Source: Polaribacter vadi (lineage in GTDB: Bacteria; Bacteroidota; Bacteroidia; Flavobacteriales; Flavobacteriaceae). Taken from it: a stretch of DNA of 64,000 bases. The notes under the pieces are model-generated. The model saw only the letters and a list, made by a program, of their open reading frames with translations. It was not told where the DNA came from and did no database searches. The first letter of the stretch is position 1, and every line of letters begins with the position of its first letter. Made by a program: the position numbers and the translations under genes. This document shows, in pieces, positions 2,578 to 63,098 of this stretch. Where the stretch lies: positions 305,459 to 369,458 of the forward strand of contig NZ_JAHKQL010000004.1 in the NCBI RefSeq assembly GCF_018861005.1, in the 5' to 3' direction.

Positions 2578-2991
2578 TTAATTATTGGTTAAATCTGCTA
2601 ATGTTGTATTTCTAAAAATTTGCAGAGTATTGTCTCTTACTTGGGTCATTAATTTATGAACTGTACAGGTATTTTCATCTGGACAATCGTCACATTTTTC
2701 ATAAAAATTAAGACTCACACAAGGCACCATTGCAATTGGCCCTTCTAAAATCCTCATAACATCTGTCATTTGAATTTCTGATGACTCTTTAATTAAATAA
2801 TAACCACCACCTTTTCCTTTTTTAGAACCTAAAAAACCATTTTTACGAAGTGTTAAAAGGATACTTTCTAAAAATTTAAGGGAAATATTTTCACTTTGAG
2901 AAATTGTAGCTATAGATACAGGTATTTTATCTTCCTGTTTTGCTAAATAAGTAAGCGCTTTTAACCCGTATTTTGTTTTTTTAGATAGCAT
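2578..2991 (-). CDS. Rrf2-family transcriptional regulator with cysteine cluster
   Basis: This is a 137-residue winged-helix regulator of the Rrf2 family (IscR, CymR, NsrR). The N-terminus MLSKKTKYGLKALTYLA and the wing KGKGGGYYL are diagnostic. Four cysteines (C91, C100, C103, C109) form a C-x8-C-x2-C-x5-C cluster where IscR-like members bind a [2Fe-2S] centre. It may therefore sense iron-sulfur, redox or sulfur status. Its closeness to the cys operon, which has an operator-like repeat at its start, suggests a sulfur-assimilation regulator, but the intervening barrel gene leaves this as inference. A TAGTTTTG box lies only 4 bases before the start codon. Confidence 0.9.
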   Translation of the reverse strand: MLSKKTKYGLKALTYLAKQEDKIPVSIATISQSENISLKFLESILLTLRKNGFLGSKKGKGGGYYLIKESSEIQMTDVMRILEGPIAMVPCVSLNFYEKCDDCPDENTCTVHKLMTQVRDNTLQIFRNTTLADLTNN

Positions 2992-4455: not shown

Positions 4456-5622
4456 CTAATTTTCTAAAGCCTGACTTAAATCTGCTATAATATCACTTGC
4501 ATTTTCTAGACCAACAGAAACTCTTACCAAACCGTTTGTAATACCAACTTCTAATCGATCTTCTTCTGACAAACGTCCATGAGTTGTAGAAGATGGATGT
4601 GTGACAATAGTTCTAGTATCACCCAAGTTTGCTGATAAAGAACACATCTTAATTTTATTTAAGAATTTTCTACCAGCTTCAATTCCGCCTTTAATTTCGA
4701 AAGCAACAATATTGCCTCCTAATTTCATTTGTTTTTTGGCAGTTTTGTACTGTGGATGAGATTCTAAAAAAGGATATTTCACCAACTCTACATTATTATT
4801 TTCTTCTAAAAAAGAGGCAACTTTTAAAGCATTTTCTGAATGTTTTTCTACACGTAAAGACAACGTTTCTAAACTTTTTGATAACACCCAAGCATTAAAA
4901 GGAGACATTGCTGGCCCAGTATTTCTAGCAAATAAATAGATTTCACGAATCAAATCTTCTTTACCTACTGTAACTCCACCTAAAACTCTTCCTTGGCCAT
5001 CCATTAATTTAGTTGCTGAATGGACTACCAAATCTGCACCAAATTTTATGGGTTGTTGTATATAAGGTGTTGCAAAGCAATTATCAACAATAAAAATTAG
5101 ATTGTGTTTTTTGGCAATATTACCTATCAACTCTAAATCTAAAATATCAACAGCAGGATTTGTTGGTGTTTCTATATAAAGAATCTTTGTATTTTCTTTA
5201 ATTAAACTTTCTACCAAATCTACTTCATCAACCTTAAAATAAGAAGTTTCTATATTCCATTTTGGCAAATATTTGGTAAACATACTGTGTGTAGAACCAA
5301 AAACAGATCTACAAGAAACAATATGATCGCCTGCATTTAACAATGCTGCAAATGACGAAAAAATTGCAGACATACCAGTTGCAAATGCGTAACCAGCTTC
5401 TGCACCTTCCATTTTTACAACCTTATCTACAAATTCTGTTGTATTAGGGTTTGTAAATCTGCTGTATAGATTACGTTGTTTTTCTTCTGCAAAAGAAGCA
5501 CGCATGTCTTCTGCATCATCAAAAACAAAACTTGATGTTAAATATAAAGGTGTAGAATGTTCAGAAAATTGACTTCTTTCTGTTTGATTTCTAATTGCTT
5601 CTGTTTCGAAATGTTTACTCAT
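4456..5622 (-). CDS. metZ: Trans-sulfuration PLP enzyme (MetZ/cystathionine gamma-synthase type)
   Basis: This is a fold-type I PLP enzyme of the Cys/Met metabolism family, 388 residues. The PLP lysine is K205 in HSATKLMDGQGRVLGG, and YSRFTNPN and ETPTNP are family motifs. As the last gene after metY and the MetX-ThrA fusion, the best fit is O-succinyl/O-acetylhomoserine sulfhydrylase, making homocysteine from acyl-homoserine and sulfide. Cystathionine gamma-synthase or a lyase cannot be excluded, since these enzymes differ by few residues. It is on the same strand, 69 bases downstream of the fusion gene, and is presumably co-transcribed under the SAM-I riboswitch. Confidence 0.85.
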   Translation of the reverse strand: MSKHFETEAIRNQTERSQFSEHSTPLYLTSSFVFDDAEDMRASFAEEKQRNLYSRFTNPNTTEFVDKVVKMEGAEAGYAFATGMSAIFSSFAALLNAGDHIVSCRSVFGSTHSMFTKYLPKWNIETSYFKVDEVDLVESLIKENTKILYIETPTNPAVDILDLELIGNIAKKHNLIFIVDNCFATPYIQQPIKFGADLVVHSATKLMDGQGRVLGGVTVGKEDLIREIYLFARNTGPAMSPFNAWVLSKSLETLSLRVEKHSENALKVASFLEENNNVELVKYPFLESHPQYKTAKKQMKLGGNIVAFEIKGGIEAGRKFLNKIKMCSLSANLGDTRTIVTHPSSTTHGRLSEEDRLEVGITNGLVRVSVGLENASDIIADLSQALEN

Positions 5623-5691: not shown

Positions 5692-8600
5692 TTAGTTGTT
5701 ATGTTTTGCTAATCTTAATATGTCTCCAAAAACACCTCTTGCTGTTACACTTGCTCCTGCTCCTGCTCCTTGAATTACAATTGGTTGTTCTCCATAAGAT
5801 TCTGTATAAATTTCAAAAATTGCATCAGAACCTTTTAAAGAACCTAAAGGTGTATTTTTGTTTGTGGAAACTAATTTCACCTCTAAAGTACCTTTATTTT
5901 GTGATAAATCTCCACTTAATTCGCCAATATAACGTAAAACGTTGTTAGGTTCTTGATTTTCTTTTATGGTTTGATATTCATCGTTCAATAAGGCTAATTT
6001 CCCTAAGAAATCTTCTGCAGCACCTTCTCTTAAATTTTCGGGAATTAGGTTTTTAATTTTAACCTCATCAAACTCGTTTTCTAATTCTAACTCTCTTGCT
6101 AAAATTAATAATTTTCTGGCAACGTCATTTCCTCCTAAATCTTCTCTTGGATCTGGTTCTGTAAATCCTTTATCAATGGCTTCTTGCAAAGTTTCTGAAA
6201 AAGATACATCTTCAGCAGAAAAAGTATTAAAAAGATAACTTAAACTTCCAGAAAAAACACCTCTAATTTTAGTGATATTCTCACCAGATTCATGTAATAA
6301 ACGAATGGTATCTATTAAAGGTAAACCTGCACCAACATTGGTTTCGTATAAATATTGTTTTTTATATTCTTTTAATTTGGCTCTTACTTCTTTGTAAAAA
6401 TCAAAAGATAACGTATTGGCAATTTTATTACAAGAAACCAAATCGAAACCTGACTCTATTAACGGAATATAATTGCCTACAAAATTTACACTTGCTGTAT
6501 TATCAACCGCAATTAAATTTTCGAAATGATTGGCTTTTGCAAAAGCAATAATATCGCTAACTTTTACATTTTCTTCACCATTTTCTAAAAGATTTTCTTT
6601 CCAGTTTTTAGAAACTCCATTTTTATTTAACAATACTTTTTTAGAGTTTGCAACTGCAAAAACATTCAATTGTAATTTGCGTCTTTCTAAAACAGATTGT
6701 GTATTTTCTATAATTTGATCGATTAATGTTCCACCAACCAAACCTTTACCAAAAATAGCAATGTTTATCTTTTTGGTTACCCCAAAAACCTGACCATGAA
6801 TTACATTTACAGCTTTATACAATTGCTCTTTTTTAACCACCAAACTCACATTTTTACCTGTAACTGTGTTATTAAATAAAAGCGGTACAATTTGATTTTT
6901 AATTAAAGCATTGTATGGATGATGAAATTGACTTAAATCTTGTCCAATAATAGAAATTACAGAAACTTCATCAAAAACTGTTATTTGATTTACATCTTGT
7001 GCCTGAAAATCACTTTCAAACTCATCTTTTAATGCATTTACAGCTCGTAAAGTATTTTCGGCATTTATCACCAAACCAACACCTCTTTCAGAGGAACCTT
7101 GTGCAATAATATTAACACTAATATCTTCTTTACTTAATGCATTAAAAATACGAGCATCTACACCAACTTTACCTAATAAACCTCTACCTTCAAAATTAAT
7201 CATCGCCATATTTTCTATGGTAGAAATTGTTTTAATCCCTTGTGATGCAGAAGTAGATGAAATTAAAGTTCCTTTATCTTTTAAATTAAAAGTATTTAAA
7301 ATTCTAAGGTTTATGTTTTTTTCTATTAACGGAATAATTGTTTTAGCATGTAACAAATTTGTACCAAAAGTAGCTAGCTCATTAGCTTCATTAAAAGACA
7401 ATTGATCTATTTTTTTAGCATCTGCAACTAATTTTGGATCAGCAGTATAAATACCACTTACGTGTGTATAATTTTGAAGTTCATCTGCATCTAAATAATT
7501 TGCCAATAAAGCTGCAGTATAATTGCTTCCATTTCTACCTAAAGTGGTTGTTTCTCCTTTTTTGTTTGATGAAATAAAACCTGTAACAATGTTAATTGTA
7601 GATTTGTTTTCTTTAAAATATTGAATTACATTTTCTTTAGAAACTCCTTGAATAGGTTGTGCGTTACCAAAATTTTCATCAGTAATTATTAACGATCTTG
7701 CATCAACAGGGTTTACAGAAATAGATTCTTTTTCTATTAAACTAGCCACTAATTTTACTGATAATAATTCACCTTGCGCTAAAACTTCATCTTTAATTTT
7801 CTGGCTATAATCACCTAACAAAGAAACACCTTCAAAAATGGTTTCTAATTTAGAAAATTCTTGAGAAAAATCAACTGCCTTATTAGGTTCTTGTTGATAT
7901 TCTTTAAATGCTAAAAATTTAGATTTATATTCCTTTTTTGCAGCTGCATTTTGTAAAATAGCTTCTAAATCATTTGTAGAATTTCCTCTTGCAGAAGCAA
8001 CAACCGTAATTTTATCTCCGCTTTTAAACTTACTAACTATAATTTCTATAGCATTTTGTAAGCCTTTTCCATTCCCTAAAGATTTACCTCCAAACTTTAA
8101 AACTTTCATCTTCTTTTCTCTATAATCTTTATTAAAAATTGGTTCTATAATTTTTTGTAGTTGATCATATTCCATTAAAAATGCATCATGACCATGCACT
8201 GAATTTATCTCATTATAGGTAACATTGTCTTTTGTTAATGCTATTTTTTTATGCGTTTCTCTATTTTCTTCTGCTGTAAAAAACAAATCAGAATCTACAC
8301 CTATAATGTGAATATTAGCATCTATCTTATCCAAAATTTCATCAGACTTTACACCACCTTTTGTTACATCTATCGTTTTTAATAATTGATTCATTAATTT
8401 ATAAGATGATAATTGGTAACGTTCTTGTAAAGATTTACCATGATGTAATAACCAACTTTCTACATCAAAAATATCTGAATCTTCTTTTTTAGATCGATGA
8501 AAACGTTCTTTAAAACTTTCTGGCGTTCTGTAACATAACATCGCGTGCATACGTGCGTCATGAACAGGATTACTAGAATTTACCAAAAATTGTTCTTGAA

Positions 8601-9093
8601 TTTGACAATTGGCAATTAACCAATCTGTTGATTTCCAATCGGTTGCAATTGGTAAAAAATGTTGCGTTAATTTATTATTTAACACCATCATTTCCCAAGC
8701 AATTCCACCACCTAAAGAACCACCAATTAAAGCAAATAATTGCTTAATTTTTAAAACGGATAATCCTTGTAAAAAAAGTTTTGCAATATCTCTAGCAATA
8801 AAATCTTTGTAATTATCTATCAGAAACTCATCAAAACCATTACCAGGAATATTAAAAGATAATACTGTATAAACAGTTGTATCAATGGCTTTTTCTTTGC
8901 CTACAATGTCTTTCCACCAACCATTTTTACCACCAACTTCGCTATTACCTGTTAATGCATGATTGATTAAAACCACAGGAGCTGAACCTAATTCTTTACC
9001 AAAAACTTGATAACTTAAATTTAATTCAGAGATAAGTACACCAGCTTCTGTGGTAAAATCTTTTATTTTAATATGTTCTAATGGTTGTGTCAA
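5692..9093 (-). CDS. Fused homoserine O-acetyltransferase, aspartokinase and homoserine dehydrogenase
   Basis: One 1133-residue reading frame joins three enzymes. Residues 1-325 are an alpha/beta hydrolase of the MetX type: nucleophile Ser126 in GGSLGG, acid in GVDSD (267-269) and His302 in HGHDAF. Residues 329-770 are an aspartokinase (MKVLKFGGKSLGN) with ACT regulatory domains at about 640-770. Residues 774-1133 are a homoserine dehydrogenase with Rossmann motif IAIFGKGLVGG, DPREDLGGNDVARK and the terminal GAGAGASVTARGV. The protein would phosphorylate aspartate, reduce aspartate semialdehyde and acetylate homoserine. Met329 (ATG 8109-8107), preceded by a purine-rich stretch, could be an internal start giving a ThrA-like product alone. 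It sits between metY and metZ. Confidence 0.9.
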   Translation of the reverse strand: MTQPLEHIKIKDFTTEAGVLISELNLSYQVFGKELGSAPVVLINHALTGNSEVGGKNGWWKDIVGKEKAIDTTVYTVLSFNIPGNGFDEFLIDNYKDFIARDIAKLFLQGLSVLKIKQLFALIGGSLGGGIAWEMMVLNNKLTQHFLPIATDWKSTDWLIANCQIQEQFLVNSSNPVHDARMHAMLCYRTPESFKERFHRSKKEDSDIFDVESWLLHHGKSLQERYQLSSYKLMNQLLKTIDVTKGGVKSDEILDKIDANIHIIGVDSDLFFTAEENRETHKKIALTKDNVTYNEINSVHGHDAFLMEYDQLQKIIEPIFNKDYREKKMKVLKFGGKSLGNGKGLQNAIEIIVSKFKSGDKITVVASARGNSTNDLEAILQNAAAKKEYKSKFLAFKEYQQEPNKAVDFSQEFSKLETIFEGVSLLGDYSQKIKDEVLAQGELLSVKLVASLIEKESISVNPVDARSLIITDENFGNAQPIQGVSKENVIQYFKENKSTINIVTGFISSNKKGETTTLGRNGSNYTAALLANYLDADELQNYTHVSGIYTADPKLVADAKKIDQLSFNEANELATFGTNLLHAKTIIPLIEKNINLRILNTFNLKDKGTLISSTSASQGIKTISTIENMAMINFEGRGLLGKVGVDARIFNALSKEDISVNIIAQGSSERGVGLVINAENTLRAVNALKDEFESDFQAQDVNQITVFDEVSVISIIGQDLSQFHHPYNALIKNQIVPLLFNNTVTGKNVSLVVKKEQLYKAVNVIHGQVFGVTKKINIAIFGKGLVGGTLIDQIIENTQSVLERRKLQLNVFAVANSKKVLLNKNGVSKNWKENLLENGEENVKVSDIIAFAKANHFENLIAVDNTASVNFVGNYIPLIESGFDLVSCNKIANTLSFDFYKEVRAKLKEYKKQYLYETNVGAGLPLIDTIRLLHESGENITKIRGVFSGSLSYLFNTFSAEDVSFSETLQEAIDKGFTEPDPREDLGGNDVARKLLILARELELENEFDEVKIKNLIPENLREGAAEDFLGKLALLNDEYQTIKENQEPNNVLRYIGELSGDLSQNKGTLEVKLVSTNKNTPLGSLKGSDAIFEIYTESYGEQPIVIQGAGAGASVTARGVFGDILRLAKHNN

Positions 9094-9146: not shown

Positions 9147-10421
9147 TTATATTTCTGAAAAAGCCGCTTTTAAATCTGCTTTTAAATCTTCTAAATCTTC
9201 AATACCAACAGACAAACGAATTAAATCTTGAGAAACCCCTGCACTTGCTTGTGCTTCTTCATCTAATTGTTGATGTGTTGTACTTGCTGGATGAATTATC
9301 AATGATTTTGTATCACCTATATTTGCTAATAAAGAGAAAACTTTTGTTTTATCTGCAATAGTTTTTGCTGCTTCAAAACCTCCTTTATGCCCAAAAGTTA
9401 CAATTCCACTTTGTCCTTTTGGTAAATATTTTTTAGCCAAACCATTGTACTTGCTGCTTTCTAATCCAGGATAATTAACCCAAGCCACTTCTTCTTGTGC
9501 TTCTAACCAAGTTGCTAAAGCCAATGCATTTTCTGAATGCTGTTTAATTCTAACTGATAAAGTTTCTAAACCTTGAATAATATTAAATGCATTTGTAGGA
9601 CTTAAAGCACCACCAAAATCACGTAATCCTTCTAAAATTAATTTAAACGTATAAGAGGCAGCACCCAAAACTTCGTGATATTTTAACCCATGATAACCTG
9701 CAGAAGGTTCTGTAAATTCTGGGAATTTTCCATTTGCCCAGTTAAAAGTTCCTGCATCTATTATTGCACCACCTAAAGAGGTTCCTTGACCACCAATATA
9801 TTTTGTTAAAGAGTGAATTACAATATTTGCTCCGTGTTTAATAGGATTTAATAACGCTGGTGTAGCCACAGTGTTATCAACAATAAAAGGCACTTCTGCA
9901 GCTTTAGAATGCTCAGCAATTGCTTCTAAATCTAAAACATCTAACTTCGGATTTCCTAAAGACTCTACAAAAAATGCTCTTGTATTTTCTTGAACAGCAT
10001 TCTTAAAATTATCAGGATTAGAAGCATCAACAAAAGTAGTTGTAATTCCGAATCTTGGTAAAGTAACACTTAATAAATTATAAGTTCCACCATACAAACT
10101 ACTAGAAGCCACAATATGATCTCCAGCTTTTAATAAAGTTAACAAACCTGTTGAAATCGCTGCTGTTCCTGATGCAAAAACTACAGCTCCAATTCCGTCT
10201 TCTACAGCTGCTAAACGATCTTGTAAAATTTGATTTGTTGGGTTGTTTAATCGCGTGTAAATAAAACCTAATTCTTTTAATGAAAAAAGATTAGCTGCAT
10301 GTTCTGAATTGTTAAAAACATAAGATGATGTTTGATAAATAGGCACAGCTCTTGTGCCTCCATTTGCTTTTACATCATGACCTGCGTGCAACGCATTTGT
10401 TGCTAATTTTTGAGTACTCAT
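9147..10421 (-). CDS. metY: O-acetylhomoserine aminocarboxypropyltransferase (sulfhydrylase)
   Basis: This cytoplasmic PLP enzyme makes homocysteine from O-acetylhomoserine and sulfide. At 424 residues it has the length of MetY, longer than cystathionine synthases, and the typical start LATNALHAGHD. The PLP lysine is K207 in HSLTKYIGGQGTSLGG. It is the first gene after the SAM-I riboswitch and is followed by the fusion enzyme that makes its acyl-homoserine substrate. A second sulfhydrylase-type gene ends the operon, so MetY and MetZ may differ in substrate or in regulation by methionine. The ATG lies about 190 bases below the end of the aptamer. Confidence 0.92.
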   Translation of the reverse strand: MSTQKLATNALHAGHDVKANGGTRAVPIYQTSSYVFNNSEHAANLFSLKELGFIYTRLNNPTNQILQDRLAAVEDGIGAVVFASGTAAISTGLLTLLKAGDHIVASSSLYGGTYNLLSVTLPRFGITTTFVDASNPDNFKNAVQENTRAFFVESLGNPKLDVLDLEAIAEHSKAAEVPFIVDNTVATPALLNPIKHGANIVIHSLTKYIGGQGTSLGGAIIDAGTFNWANGKFPEFTEPSAGYHGLKYHEVLGAASYTFKLILEGLRDFGGALSPTNAFNIIQGLETLSVRIKQHSENALALATWLEAQEEVAWVNYPGLESSKYNGLAKKYLPKGQSGIVTFGHKGGFEAAKTIADKTKVFSLLANIGDTKSLIIHPASTTHQQLDEEAQASAGVSQDLIRLSVGIEDLEDLKADLKAAFSEI

Positions 10422-10447
10422 TTTTCTATTTTTTTGAGTTAATTTAG

Positions 10448-10467
10448 ATTCCTACTTTCGTTGGAAT
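10448..10467. repeat. Small palindromic intergenic element
   Basis: The arms ATTCCTAC and GTTGGAAT around a TTTC loop pair with one mismatch, followed by GACA. It resembles short REP-like palindromes dispersed in flavobacterial genomes. It lies in the metY leader and might also act on the transcript. Confidence 0.3.
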
Positions 10468-10611
10468 GACATTTTCAAAAGAAACTCAATACGTTGTATT
10501 GTGAATCGCTTTGAGATTAAAACAAAAGTCAAATTCATCAATTTTTGTTGATGTTTTTACTAGAAAAATGTTATTAAGAAAACTAAATATTCAAACTTGG
10601 AATATTCTTTT

Positions 10612-10741
10612 TTGTTATCTATCCAACTAAAAATAGTTGAGTAGAATTTAGCACCTTCTTTAAAATACAGAATAGATTTCTGCATTACAAAGGGTTGCTA
10701 AGGCTTCATTGGGTCTAATCCCTTCACCTTTCTTGATAACA
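10612..10741 (-). promoter_or_regulatory. SAM-I (S-box) riboswitch of the metY operon
   Basis: The minus strand shows the S-box core in order: TGTTATCAAGAAAGGTG (10741-10725), AGGGA, GACCC, TGAAGCC, TTAGCAACC, then GGTGCTAAATTC (10655-10644). P1 closes with TGTTATC (10741-10735) and GATAACA (10618-10612), a perfect 7-base helix. The hairpin CAACTA/TAGTTG is P4. High SAM is expected to lower expression of metY, the MetX-ThrA fusion and metZ. The expression platform is not clear: a weak AATATTC/GAATATT hairpin follows at about 10579-10604. Confidence 0.95.
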
Positions 10742-10770
10742 TTTCAATAAGTTATTGAACTTTGTGAGTA

Positions 10771-10801
10771 CAAATATTGCAATAGAAAAATTTAATATCC
10801 A
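10771..10801 (-). promoter_or_regulatory. Promoter of the metY operon (candidate)
   Basis: On the minus strand AATATTTG (10778-10771) is one base off TAnnTTTG, with TTG about 21 bases upstream. The start would fall near 10765, some 24 bases before the SAM-I aptamer. Confidence 0.4.
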
Positions 10802-10911
10802 AGTAAAATGCAATTTATTTTATATTATTTAACAAATTGATAGTATTTTACGAATTAACCCTAAAAAAGAATATTTTTTTTATATAAATGCAATTATTTA
10901 TAAGAATGATG

Positions 10912-10919
10912 TAAATTTG
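10912..10919 (+). promoter_or_regulatory. -7 promoter box of metK
   Basis: TAAATTTG matches the Bacteroidetes -7 consensus TAnnTTTG exactly. The expected start, about 10925, is just before the first paired base (10931) of the SAM-II-like RNA, so the whole aptamer is at the 5' end of the transcript. Confidence 0.65.
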
Positions 10920-10930
10920 CATTTCAATAC

Positions 10931-11014
10931 AGAGGAAAAATTTGAACTGATTGCAACCTCTTAAAAAAAATGCTAAAGCAGTAATTACCTACTTCTTTTA
11001 GCGACAAAGCAATC
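10931..11014 (+). promoter_or_regulatory. SAM-II/SAM-V-type riboswitch upstream of metK (candidate)
   Basis: The plus strand reads AGAGG (10931-10935), a loop ending in ATTGCAA, then CCTCT (10957-10961), an A-rich linker, and TGCTAAAG (10971-10978). This is the layout of the SAM-II H-type pseudoknot, whose conserved pieces are ATTGCAA after the loop and GCTAAAG in the tail. The second helix is ACTG (10946-10949) with CAGT (10979-10982). Downstream sequence can form a rival structure: GATTGC (10949-10954) with GCAATC (11009-11014), and GCTAAA (10972-10977) with TTTAGC (10997-11002). The position between the promoter and metK supports SAM sensing. The class is by pattern only. Confidence 0.65.
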
Positions 11015-11052
11015 ATTTATTATTATAATTTATTTAAAATACATATAAATTT

Positions 11053-12309
11053 ATGTCGTATTTATTTACATCAGAAAGTGTTTCAGAAGGGCATCCAGAC
11101 AAAGTTGCAGATCAAATATCTGACGCTTTAATAGATAACTTTTTAGCTTTTGACAAAGAAAGTAAAGTGGCTTGCGAAACTTTAGTAACAACAGGTCAAG
11201 TAGTTTTAGCTGGTGAAGTTAAATCTAAAACCTATTTAGATGTTCAAAAAATTGCAAGAGATGTAATCAATAAAATTGGTTACACAAAAGGCGAATATAT
11301 GTTTGATGGAAATTCTTGTGGAGTTTTATCTGCAATTCACGAACAATCACCAGATATAAACCAAGGTGTAGACAGGTCTAGCCCAGAAGAACAAGGTGCA
11401 GGAGATCAAGGAATGATGTTTGGTTATGCTACTGACGAAACTGAAAACTATATGCCTTTGGCTTTAGAATTATCTCACAGATTGCTAAAAGAATTGGCAG
11501 AAATCCGAAGAGAAAATTCAGATATTACGTATTTAAGACCAGATGCAAAAAGTCAGGTAACTATAGAGTATTCTGATGATAACGTTCCACAAAGAATTGA
11601 TGCCATTGTAATTTCTACTCAACATGATGATTTTGATCCTTCAGAAGAAATAATGTTATCAAAAATCAAAAAAGACATTGTTGAAATTTTAATACCAAGA
11701 GTTATTGCAAAATTACCTGCTCATATTCAAAAATTATTTACTGATGATATTACGTATCACATAAATCCTACTGGAGTATTTGTTATTGGTGGACCACATG
11801 GAGATACTGGCTTAACAGGTAGAAAAATTATTGTAGATACTTATGGTGGAAAAGGCGCTCATGGAGGAGGAGCATTTTCTGGAAAAGATCCAAGTAAAGT
11901 AGATAGATCTGGAGCTTATGCAACAAGGCATATTGCTAAAAACTTAGTTGCTGCTGGCGTTTGTAAAGAAGTTTTGGTTCAGGTTTCTTATGCTATTGGT
12001 GTAGCAAAACCAACAAGTATAAATGTAGAAACTTACGGTACTTCTAATATTAATTTAACAGATGGAGAAATCAGTAAAAAAGTAGCTTCTATTTTTGACA
12101 TGCGTCCTTATTTTATTGAGCAACGTTTAAAATTAAGAACACCTATTTATTCAGAAACTGCTGCTTATGGACATATGGGAAGAACATCAGAAGTAAAAAC
12201 GGTTACTTTTTCAAATCCTATGGGAGAAACTGTTTCTGAAGAAGTAGAAACTTTTACTTGGGAAAAACTAGATTATGTTGACACAATAAAAGAAGCTTTT
12301 AATTTATAA
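11053..12309 (+). CDS. metK: S-adenosylmethionine synthetase
   Basis: MetK makes SAM from methionine and ATP in the cytoplasm. The 418-residue protein has the start [22 protein letters not shown], the central [18 protein letters not shown] loop and the KIIVDTYGG motif, all family hallmarks; the length suits the flavobacterial form. It is transcribed away from the methionine biosynthesis operon and carries its own SAM-sensing leader of a different class. A strong terminator follows. The ATG is preceded by an AT-rich stretch without a Shine-Dalgarno sequence, as usual here. Confidence 0.97.
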
Positions 12310-63035: not shown

Positions 63036-63051
63036 AATTTGTTAATTTTTT

Positions 63052-63098
63052 AAGGTTCTCGACCTTGATTATTAAAAATCTTACCATCTCGTGATAAG
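63052..63098 (-). promoter_or_regulatory. Twin-hairpin leader of rpsP (candidate regulatory RNA)
   Basis: On the minus strand the leader forms CTTATC-acgagat-GGTAAG (63098-63080) and then AAGGT-cgaga-ACCTT (63066-63052). Both loops present CGAGA. The layout suggests a ribosomal-protein leader where S16 or another protein binds its own message. I cannot test folding or conservation here. Confidence 0.45.

What the first reader, a model, noticed from the sequence alone, without database searches (positions are those of the whole stretch)
10612..11014. Two unrelated SAM-sensing RNAs back to back: SAM-I for synthesis, SAM-II-like for metK
The minus-strand SAM-I riboswitch controls methionine synthesis (metY operon), and a plus-strand RNA with the SAM-II core precedes metK. 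They are divergent and 190 bases apart. One metabolite read by two RNA architectures in one intergenic region would allow different SAM thresholds for making methionine and for turning it into SAM.
Basis: partly seen in the sequence, partly recalled or inferred. Interest (0 to 1): 0.75.

Follow-up and report, generated by a model that had tools for sequence, protein, structure and literature searches.

The report
Back-to-back SAM-I and SAM-II riboswitches
In a Polaribacter-like sea bacterium, two unrelated RNA sensors for the same molecule (SAM) sit back to back and appear to control methionine synthesis on one side and its conversion to SAM on the other; this pairing recurs across the flavobacteria and contradicts an old statement that no species carries both.

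Summary
Covariance models find SAM-I (RF00162, 76.9 bits) at 10742-10612 minus and SAM-II "long loop" (RF01726, 72.5 bits) at 10926-10986 plus, 183 bases apart and divergent. SAM-I leads metY, a metX-aspartokinase-homoserine dehydrogenase fusion and an OSHS-like gene; SAM-II leads metK. The organism is Polaribacter-like. In one genome per genus of the family, SAM-II occurs in 114/120 and SAM-I in 94/120, 91 carrying both; 16 have the compact head-to-head form. A 2007 survey found no species with both (PMC2258182); SAM-II long loops in Bacteroidetes were listed in 2010. So both families are known; the pairing is a flavobacterial rule I did not find described. The new part is the predicted expression platforms. 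The metY leader has one strand complementary both to the SAM-I P1 5' strand and to the metY start codon (CAUUUUUCUA/UAGAAAAAUG), suggesting SAM-dependent start-codon masking without Shine-Dalgarno. SAM-II leaders carry a downstream strand complementary to the aptamer, with compensatory changes; its output step is unresolved. Different SAM thresholds are untested. Everything about mechanism is computed, not measured.

The parts
10612..10742 (-). SAM-I riboswitch aptamer of the metY leader
   Evidence: RF00162, 76.9 bits, E 2.6e-16, complete model
10926..10986 (+). SAM-II (long-loop) riboswitch aptamer of the metK leader
   Evidence: RF01726, 72.5 bits, E 4.2e-12, complete model
11053..12309 (+). 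metK, methionine adenosyltransferase (SAM synthetase)
   Evidence: TIGR01034, 516 bits, cut-off 309.4
9147..10421 (-). metY, O-acetylhomoserine sulfhydrylase
   Evidence: TIGR01326, 612.9 bits, cut-off 495.1
5692..9093 (-). fusion of a MetX-like domain and bifunctional aspartokinase/homoserine dehydrogenase, downstream of metY
   Evidence: NF006959 744.3 bits over residues 329-1131 (above cut-off); TIGR01392 MetX match over residues 10-318 at 178 bits, below its cut-off
4456..5622 (-). O-succinylhomoserine sulfhydrylase-like gene
   Evidence: NF006003 518.1 bits, cut-off 522, so just below
10729..10742 (-). 5' strand of SAM-I P1 (AUGUUAUCAAGAAA), target of the anti-P1 strand
   Evidence: sequence; enforced and alternative folds
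10568..10582 (-). anti-P1 strand UUUUCUUAAUAACAU, complementary to the P1 5' strand with one internal mismatch
   Evidence: counterpart significant (p<=0.05) in 23 of 31 metY-type and 27 of 30 metH leaders
10561..10570 (-). start-codon mask CAUUUUUCUA
   Evidence: 10 perfect pairs with 10428-10419; overlaps the anti-P1 strand by three bases
10419..10428 (-). metY initiation region UAGAAAAAUG, predicted to be masked when SAM is bound
   Evidence: mask pairing probability 0.98 with the aptamer enforced, 0.26 with anti-P1 enforced
10948..10954 (+). SAM-II aptamer segment UGAUUGC that pairs with the downstream anti-aptamer strand
   Evidence: duplex -8.9 kcal/mol against -5.7 shuffled, p 0.05 in the window itself
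11009..11015 (+). anti-aptamer strand GCAAUCA in the metK leader
   Evidence: the equivalent strand is found in most of 111 family leaders
10912..10919 (+). promoter -7 box TAAATTTG (TAnnTTTG) for the metK transcript
   Evidence: 110 of 111 family SAM-II leaders have TAnnTTTG within 42 nt, median 16 nt from the aptamer core
10771..10778 (-). probable -7 box AATATTTG (one mismatch to TAnnTTTG) for the metY transcript
   Evidence: position and recurrence in other metY leaders

Best explanation
Two genuine SAM riboswitches of unrelated fold drive divergent transcripts and both most likely act as OFF switches. Minus strand: when SAM is low, the 5' strand of SAM-I P1 is captured by a downstream strand (10582-10568), leaving the metY start region open; when SAM binds, P1 forms, the strand is released, and its 3' part (CAUUUUUCUA, 10570-10561) pairs with UAGAAAAAUG around the metY start codon, stopping translation without any Shine-Dalgarno sequence. 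Plus strand: transcription starts just before SAM-II; when SAM is low the aptamer is pulled apart by a downstream strand (GCAAUCA, 11009-11015; in most relatives GUCAAAUC against GAUUUGAC), and when SAM binds the pseudoknot forms and that strand is released, lowering metK expression by a step not identified here. Shown by computation: both aptamers, genes, promoter box, complementarities, conservation. Inferred: SAM binding, direction of regulation, start-codon masking in the cell, and the output step of SAM-II.
For: Both models match end to end. Genes assigned by NCBIfam. Both aptamers are conserved in the family (114 and 94 of 120 genera) and in other Polaribacter. SAM-I: with the aptamer enforced, the mask pairs with probability 0.98 and the start region (-10..+3) is 21% unpaired; with anti-P1 enforced, 0.26 and 65%. 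Over 31 leaders of this type, start-region openness is 0.28 unconstrained and 0.20 with the aptamer blocked, higher in 22 and lower in 2 (Wilcoxon p 1.5e-5). Duplexes beat shuffles (p<=0.05) in 29/31 for the mask, 23/31 for anti-P1, and 27/30 for anti-P1 in metH leaders. SAM-II: aptamer/downstream duplex -14.2 against -8.7 kcal/mol shuffled over 111 leaders; own partners beat permuted partners in 2000 of 2000 permutations, also within each subtype; one helix position shows A-U in 28 and G-C in 14 (permutation p 0.0003). Flavobacteria lack Shine-Dalgarno sequences and tune initiation by structure near the start codon (PMC6847099).
Against: No SAM binding or expression data. The mask target (-10..+4) was chosen after the mask had been seen; an ungapped test over a wider target gave p<0.05 in only 3 of 34 metY leaders. 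The nine-base core of the mask never varies, so it gives no covariation; the next position gives p 0.064. Ten metY leaders of another subtype lack this mask. For SAM-II, start-region openness does not change between simulated states (0.51 and 0.49), and no consensus mask of metK is seen (13.9 against 13.8); in the window itself the anti-aptamer pairing is weak (p 0.05). Leaders are related by descent, so sequence counts are not independent.
Confidence: 0.6

Rival explanations
1. Both riboswitches act on transcription: SAM binding lets a hairpin followed by a U-rich tract (SAM-I), or Rho loading on an exposed pyrimidine-rich strand (SAM-II), stop RNA polymerase before the gene.
For: In several metY and metH leaders a local hairpin precedes a U-rich stretch after P1, for example L054, L061 and L050. 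The SAM-II platform is C-rich over G (C/G 1.86). SAM-II in proteobacteria often precedes terminators (PMC2258182, PMC1273637).
Against: No terminator-like site is found by consensus scan on the relevant strands after either aptamer in the window. The hairpin before the U-tract in the metY leader is not disrupted by anti-P1 pairing in the predicted folds. Pyrimidine richness also follows from complementarity to the purine-rich aptamer. No Rho data.
Confidence: 0.25
2. The two aptamers use different classes so as to respond at different SAM concentrations, metK and metY being shut off in sequence.
For: The class assignment is conserved: SAM-II on metK, SAM-I on synthesis genes.
Against: No affinity data here. 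In small-genome relatives SAM-II serves both functions, and SAM-I alone serves several synthesis operons, so a fixed difference is not essential.
Confidence: 0.3
3. The pairing is historical only: an ancestral SAM-II on metK and an ancestral SAM-I on metY or metH came to lie side by side through clustering of met genes, with no joint function of the shared intergenic region. (Compatible with the best explanation of how each switch works.)
For: The same two leaders occur head to head, kilobases apart or co-directional in different genera (17 co-directional, 16 divergent under 350 bp, 11 divergent further apart). The two transcripts do not overlap and share only the promoter region.
Against: The compact head-to-head form recurs in 16 genera, eight of them with a gap of 125-128 bases, though that can be common descent.
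Confidence: 0.6

Closest known systems
SAM-II long-loop riboswitches (RF01726; Weinberg 2010, PMC2864571)
   Same: Aptamer matches the family model end to end; taxa listed there are Bacteroidetes and marine sequences, and this is a marine Bacteroidetes.
   Different: That paper defers details to supplements I could not read; I found no description of the anti-aptamer strand or of the pairing with SAM-I.
SAM-I (S box) riboswitches (RF00162), as in Bacillus subtilis
   Same: Complete aptamer, P1 as the switching helix, methionine genes downstream.
   Different: Those are mostly transcription terminators in Firmicutes; here no U-tailed terminator is evident by a consensus scan, the 5' strand of P1 is captured, and the predicted output is masking of the start codon in a group without Shine-Dalgarno sites.
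Tandem SAM-II/SAM-V (Pelagibacter) and SAM-II with SAM-I/IV tandems (PMC9481103, PMC11508383)
   Same: Two SAM aptamer classes in one intergenic region.
   Different: Those lie in series on one RNA before one gene; here they lie on two divergent RNAs before two operons with opposite roles in SAM supply.
S. meliloti metA SAM-II controlling translation at a distance (PMC9373788)
   Same: SAM-II acting on translation initiation of a methionine gene.
   Different: Alphaproteobacterial SAM-II (RF00521 type); the window element fails the RF00521 threshold.

Membership tests
SAM-I (RF00162) | Covariance-model score above the gathering cut-off over the whole model | tested here: met
   76.9 bits against 44.4, positions 1-108
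SAM-I (RF00162) | Located in the leader of a methionine/SAM-cycle gene on the same strand | tested here: met
   metY starts 190 bases after the aptamer
SAM-I (RF00162) | Binds SAM and discriminates against SAH | not testable with these tools
   needs in-line probing or ITC
SAM-II long loop (RF01726) | Covariance-model score above the gathering cut-off over the whole model | tested here: met
   72.5 bits against 44, positions 1-60
SAM-II long loop (RF01726) | Located in the leader of a methionine/SAM-cycle gene | tested here: met
   metK starts 66 bases after the aptamer
SAM-II long loop (RF01726) | Binds SAM through the pseudoknot | not testable with these tools
   needs in-line probing, SHAPE or ITC
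SAM-II, alphaproteobacterial (RF00521) | Score above gathering cut-off | tested here: not met
   18.4 bits against 36
SAM-V (RF01826) | Score above gathering cut-off | tested here: not met
   16.5 bits against 41
Intrinsic-terminator riboswitch | Stable hairpin plus U-run between aptamer and gene, mutually exclusive with an antiterminator | tested here: not met
   no terminator-like site on the relevant strand after either aptamer in 10380-11060 by a consensus scan; weak AU-rich hairpins are not excluded
Translational riboswitch with RBS/start sequestration | Ligand-bound fold pairs the initiation region, alternative fold frees it | tested here: inconclusive
   predicted for metY, not seen for metK; no experiment

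The most novel reading that the evidence does not exclude
Flavobacteria have evolved a shared platform logic for two unrelated SAM aptamers in which a downstream strand unmakes the aptamer when SAM is scarce, and in SAM-I the same strand masks the start codon when SAM is bound, giving riboswitch control of translation without a Shine-Dalgarno sequence; with SAM-II on metK and SAM-I on synthesis, the two RNAs balance supply and use of methionine from one locus.
Probability: 0.4. Interest if true: 0.68.

Novelty: new variant of a known kind. Interest (0 to 1): 0.5.

Why it matters
It corrects the picture that SAM-I and SAM-II do not share a genome (stated from 2007 data in PMC2258182): in this family the two are the rule, with a conserved division of labour. 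It also makes a concrete, testable proposal for an open question: how riboswitches control translation in Bacteroidetes, whose mRNAs lack Shine-Dalgarno sequences.

Tried and rejected
RF00521 and SAM-V as the identity of the plus-strand element: both below threshold. Intrinsic terminators: consensus scan finds none on the relevant strands. A start-codon mask for metK: a general search gives no excess over shuffles (13.9 against 13.8), apart from a small-genome marine subgroup with GUGUUGCUUU/AAAGCAACA-type helices and compensatory changes (L083, L105, L113, L127, L142, L156, L160). Simulated SAM-bound and SAM-free folds of metK leaders give no change in start-region openness. The local hairpin GCUAAAG/CUUUAGC after SAM-II is not significant overall (14 of 111 at p<=0.05). 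Ungapped tests of anti-P1 in metY leaders were negative; only energy-based duplexes that allow an internal loop were positive. A mask for the second metY subtype was not significant. Extending the anti-P1 test to other orders failed because my sequence pattern found only one usable leader. A structure-pair count was tried without an alignment and is not used.

Full report
OBSERVATION. Searching all of Rfam with the window gives four matches over threshold, two of them here: SAM-I (RF00162) at 10742-10612 minus, 76.9 bits, E 2.6e-16, and SAM-II long loop (RF01726) at 10926-10986 plus, 72.5 bits, E 4.2e-12, each over the whole model. The aptamers are divergent and 183 bases apart.

GENES. metK (11053-12309 plus) starts 66 bases after SAM-II. 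On the minus strand metY (9147-10421) starts 190 bases after SAM-I and is followed by a fusion of a MetX-like domain with aspartokinase/homoserine dehydrogenase (5692-9093) and an O-succinylhomoserine sulfhydrylase-like gene (4456-5622). The closest named metK is 94% identical, in Polaribacter sp. Hel1_85. The genome has one SAM-II and two SAM-I; the second SAM-I, about 20 kb away, precedes a split metH and metF. So in this genome SAM-I sits on making methionine and SAM-II on turning it into SAM.

DISTRIBUTION. In one genome for each of 120 genera of the family, SAM-II is found in 114 and SAM-I in 94; 91 have both (three genomes with SAM-I lack SAM-II). In the wider class the pattern is different: SAM-I in 178 of 247 genomes, SAM-II in 34 of 247. 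The compact form is also seen in other Polaribacter (L273, L275, L276). In small-genome relatives without SAM-I, metY follows metK behind one SAM-II, or has its own SAM-II. One complete genome, G118, has no recognisable SAM-II before metK.

STARTS OF TRANSCRIPTION. The flavobacterial -7 box TAnnTTTG (PMC9723704) lies at 10912-10919 just before SAM-II, and in 110 of 111 family leaders an exact TAnnTTTG lies a median 16 bases before the aptamer core (5-95%: 12-20). SAM-II therefore forms the very 5' end of the metK mRNA. For SAM-I the box is often off by one base (AATATTTG, here 10778-10771), about 27 bases before P1 where it is exact. The two leaders do not overlap.

SAM-I PLATFORM. After SAM-I, the metY leader carries UUUUCUUAAUAACAUUUUUCUA (10582-10561 minus). 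Its first part is complementary to the P1 5' strand AUGUUAUCAAGAAA with one mismatch; its last ten bases are a perfect complement of UAGAAAAAUG, which contains the metY start codon. The two parts overlap by three bases, so they compete. With the aptamer enforced, the mask helix forms with probability 0.98 and the start region (-10..+3) is 21% open; with the anti-P1 helix enforced these are 0.26 and 65% (20 C, no pseudoknots). In 31 leaders of this type the start region is more open without the aptamer constraint in 22 and less in 2 (Wilcoxon p 1.5e-5). Energy-based duplexes beat shuffled leaders (p<=0.05) in 29 of 31 for the mask, 23 of 31 for anti-P1, and 27 of 30 for anti-P1 in metH leaders, where it reaches 16 uninterrupted pairs in L039, L047 and L048. 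The caveats are real: the mask test was narrowed to -10..+4 after the mask had been seen, a broader test was weak, the nine-base core of the mask never varies, and a second subtype of ten metY leaders does not show it.

SAM-II PLATFORM. In most family leaders a strand 15-40 bases before the metK start is complementary to the 5' half of the SAM-II aptamer (GAUUUGAC/GUCAAAUC, or around GAUUGC/GCAAUC in the subtype to which the window belongs). Duplex energy averages -14.2 against -8.7 kcal/mol for shuffles; the mean pairing of aptamers with their own leaders beats that with permuted leaders in all of 2000 permutations, also within each subtype. The position next to GAUUUG shows A-U 28 times and G-C 14 times (permutation p 0.0003). 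In the window the pairing is TGATTGC/GCAATCA, -8.9 against -5.7 kcal/mol, p 0.05. How this changes metK expression is not resolved: the start region is equally open in both simulated states, and no general mask of the metK start is seen, except in a small-genome subgroup.

HOW IT MOST LIKELY WORKS. Low SAM: both aptamers are dismantled by their downstream strands, both operons are on. High SAM: both aptamers form; on the minus strand the freed strand covers the metY start codon; on the plus strand metK falls by an unidentified step. Shown here: aptamers, genes, conservation, complementarity. Inferred: ligand binding, direction of control, masking in cells. That flavobacterial mRNAs lack Shine-Dalgarno sequences and depend on structure and adenines near the start codon is from PMC6847099.

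WHAT IS KNOWN. SAM-II long loops were listed for Bacteroidetes and marine sequences in 2010 (PMC2864571). A 2007 survey saw both classes in Bacteroidetes but no species with both (PMC2258182). Two SAM classes in series on one RNA are known (SAM-II/SAM-V, and seven plus two cases with SAM-I/IV; PMC9481103). In the open-access library searched I found no account of SAM-I and SAM-II in divergent leaders or of these platforms; subscription papers and supplements were not available, so this is weak evidence of novelty.

VERDICT. Known parts in a conserved but apparently undescribed arrangement, with a specific and testable new proposal for the expression platforms.

Noticed in passing
10749-10762 (minus), between the probable promoter and SAM-I: AAGTTCAATAACTT, able to form a short 5' stem-loop, lies in a conserved stretch just before P1 and recurs before other SAM-I leaders of the family. 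It may protect the 5' end or help start the leader.
   Followed up: partly
10446-10470 (minus): GTCATTCCAACGAAAGTAGGAATCT, with an inverted-repeat look, sits inside the metY leader; a similar stretch is in the same place in L275. It occurs once in the window and looks like a dispersed repeat.
   Followed up: partly
L083, L105, L113, L127, L142, L156, L160, metK leaders: Small-genome relatives have a helix directly after SAM-II (GUGUUGCUUU with AAAGCAACA and variants with compensatory changes) that ends just before the metK start codon; several have metY directly after metK.
   Followed up: partly
G118 (L354), upstream of metK: A complete genome of the family keeps SAM-I elsewhere but has no recognisable SAM-II before metK.
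   Followed up: no
63042-63075 (minus): S16-Flavobacteria ribosomal protein leader, RF03138, 43.6 bits, over its cut-off.
   Followed up: no
2578-2991 (minus): A short ORF that reads like an Rrf2-type regulator lies between the methionine genes and the sulfate-assimilation genes (by eye only).
   Followed up: no
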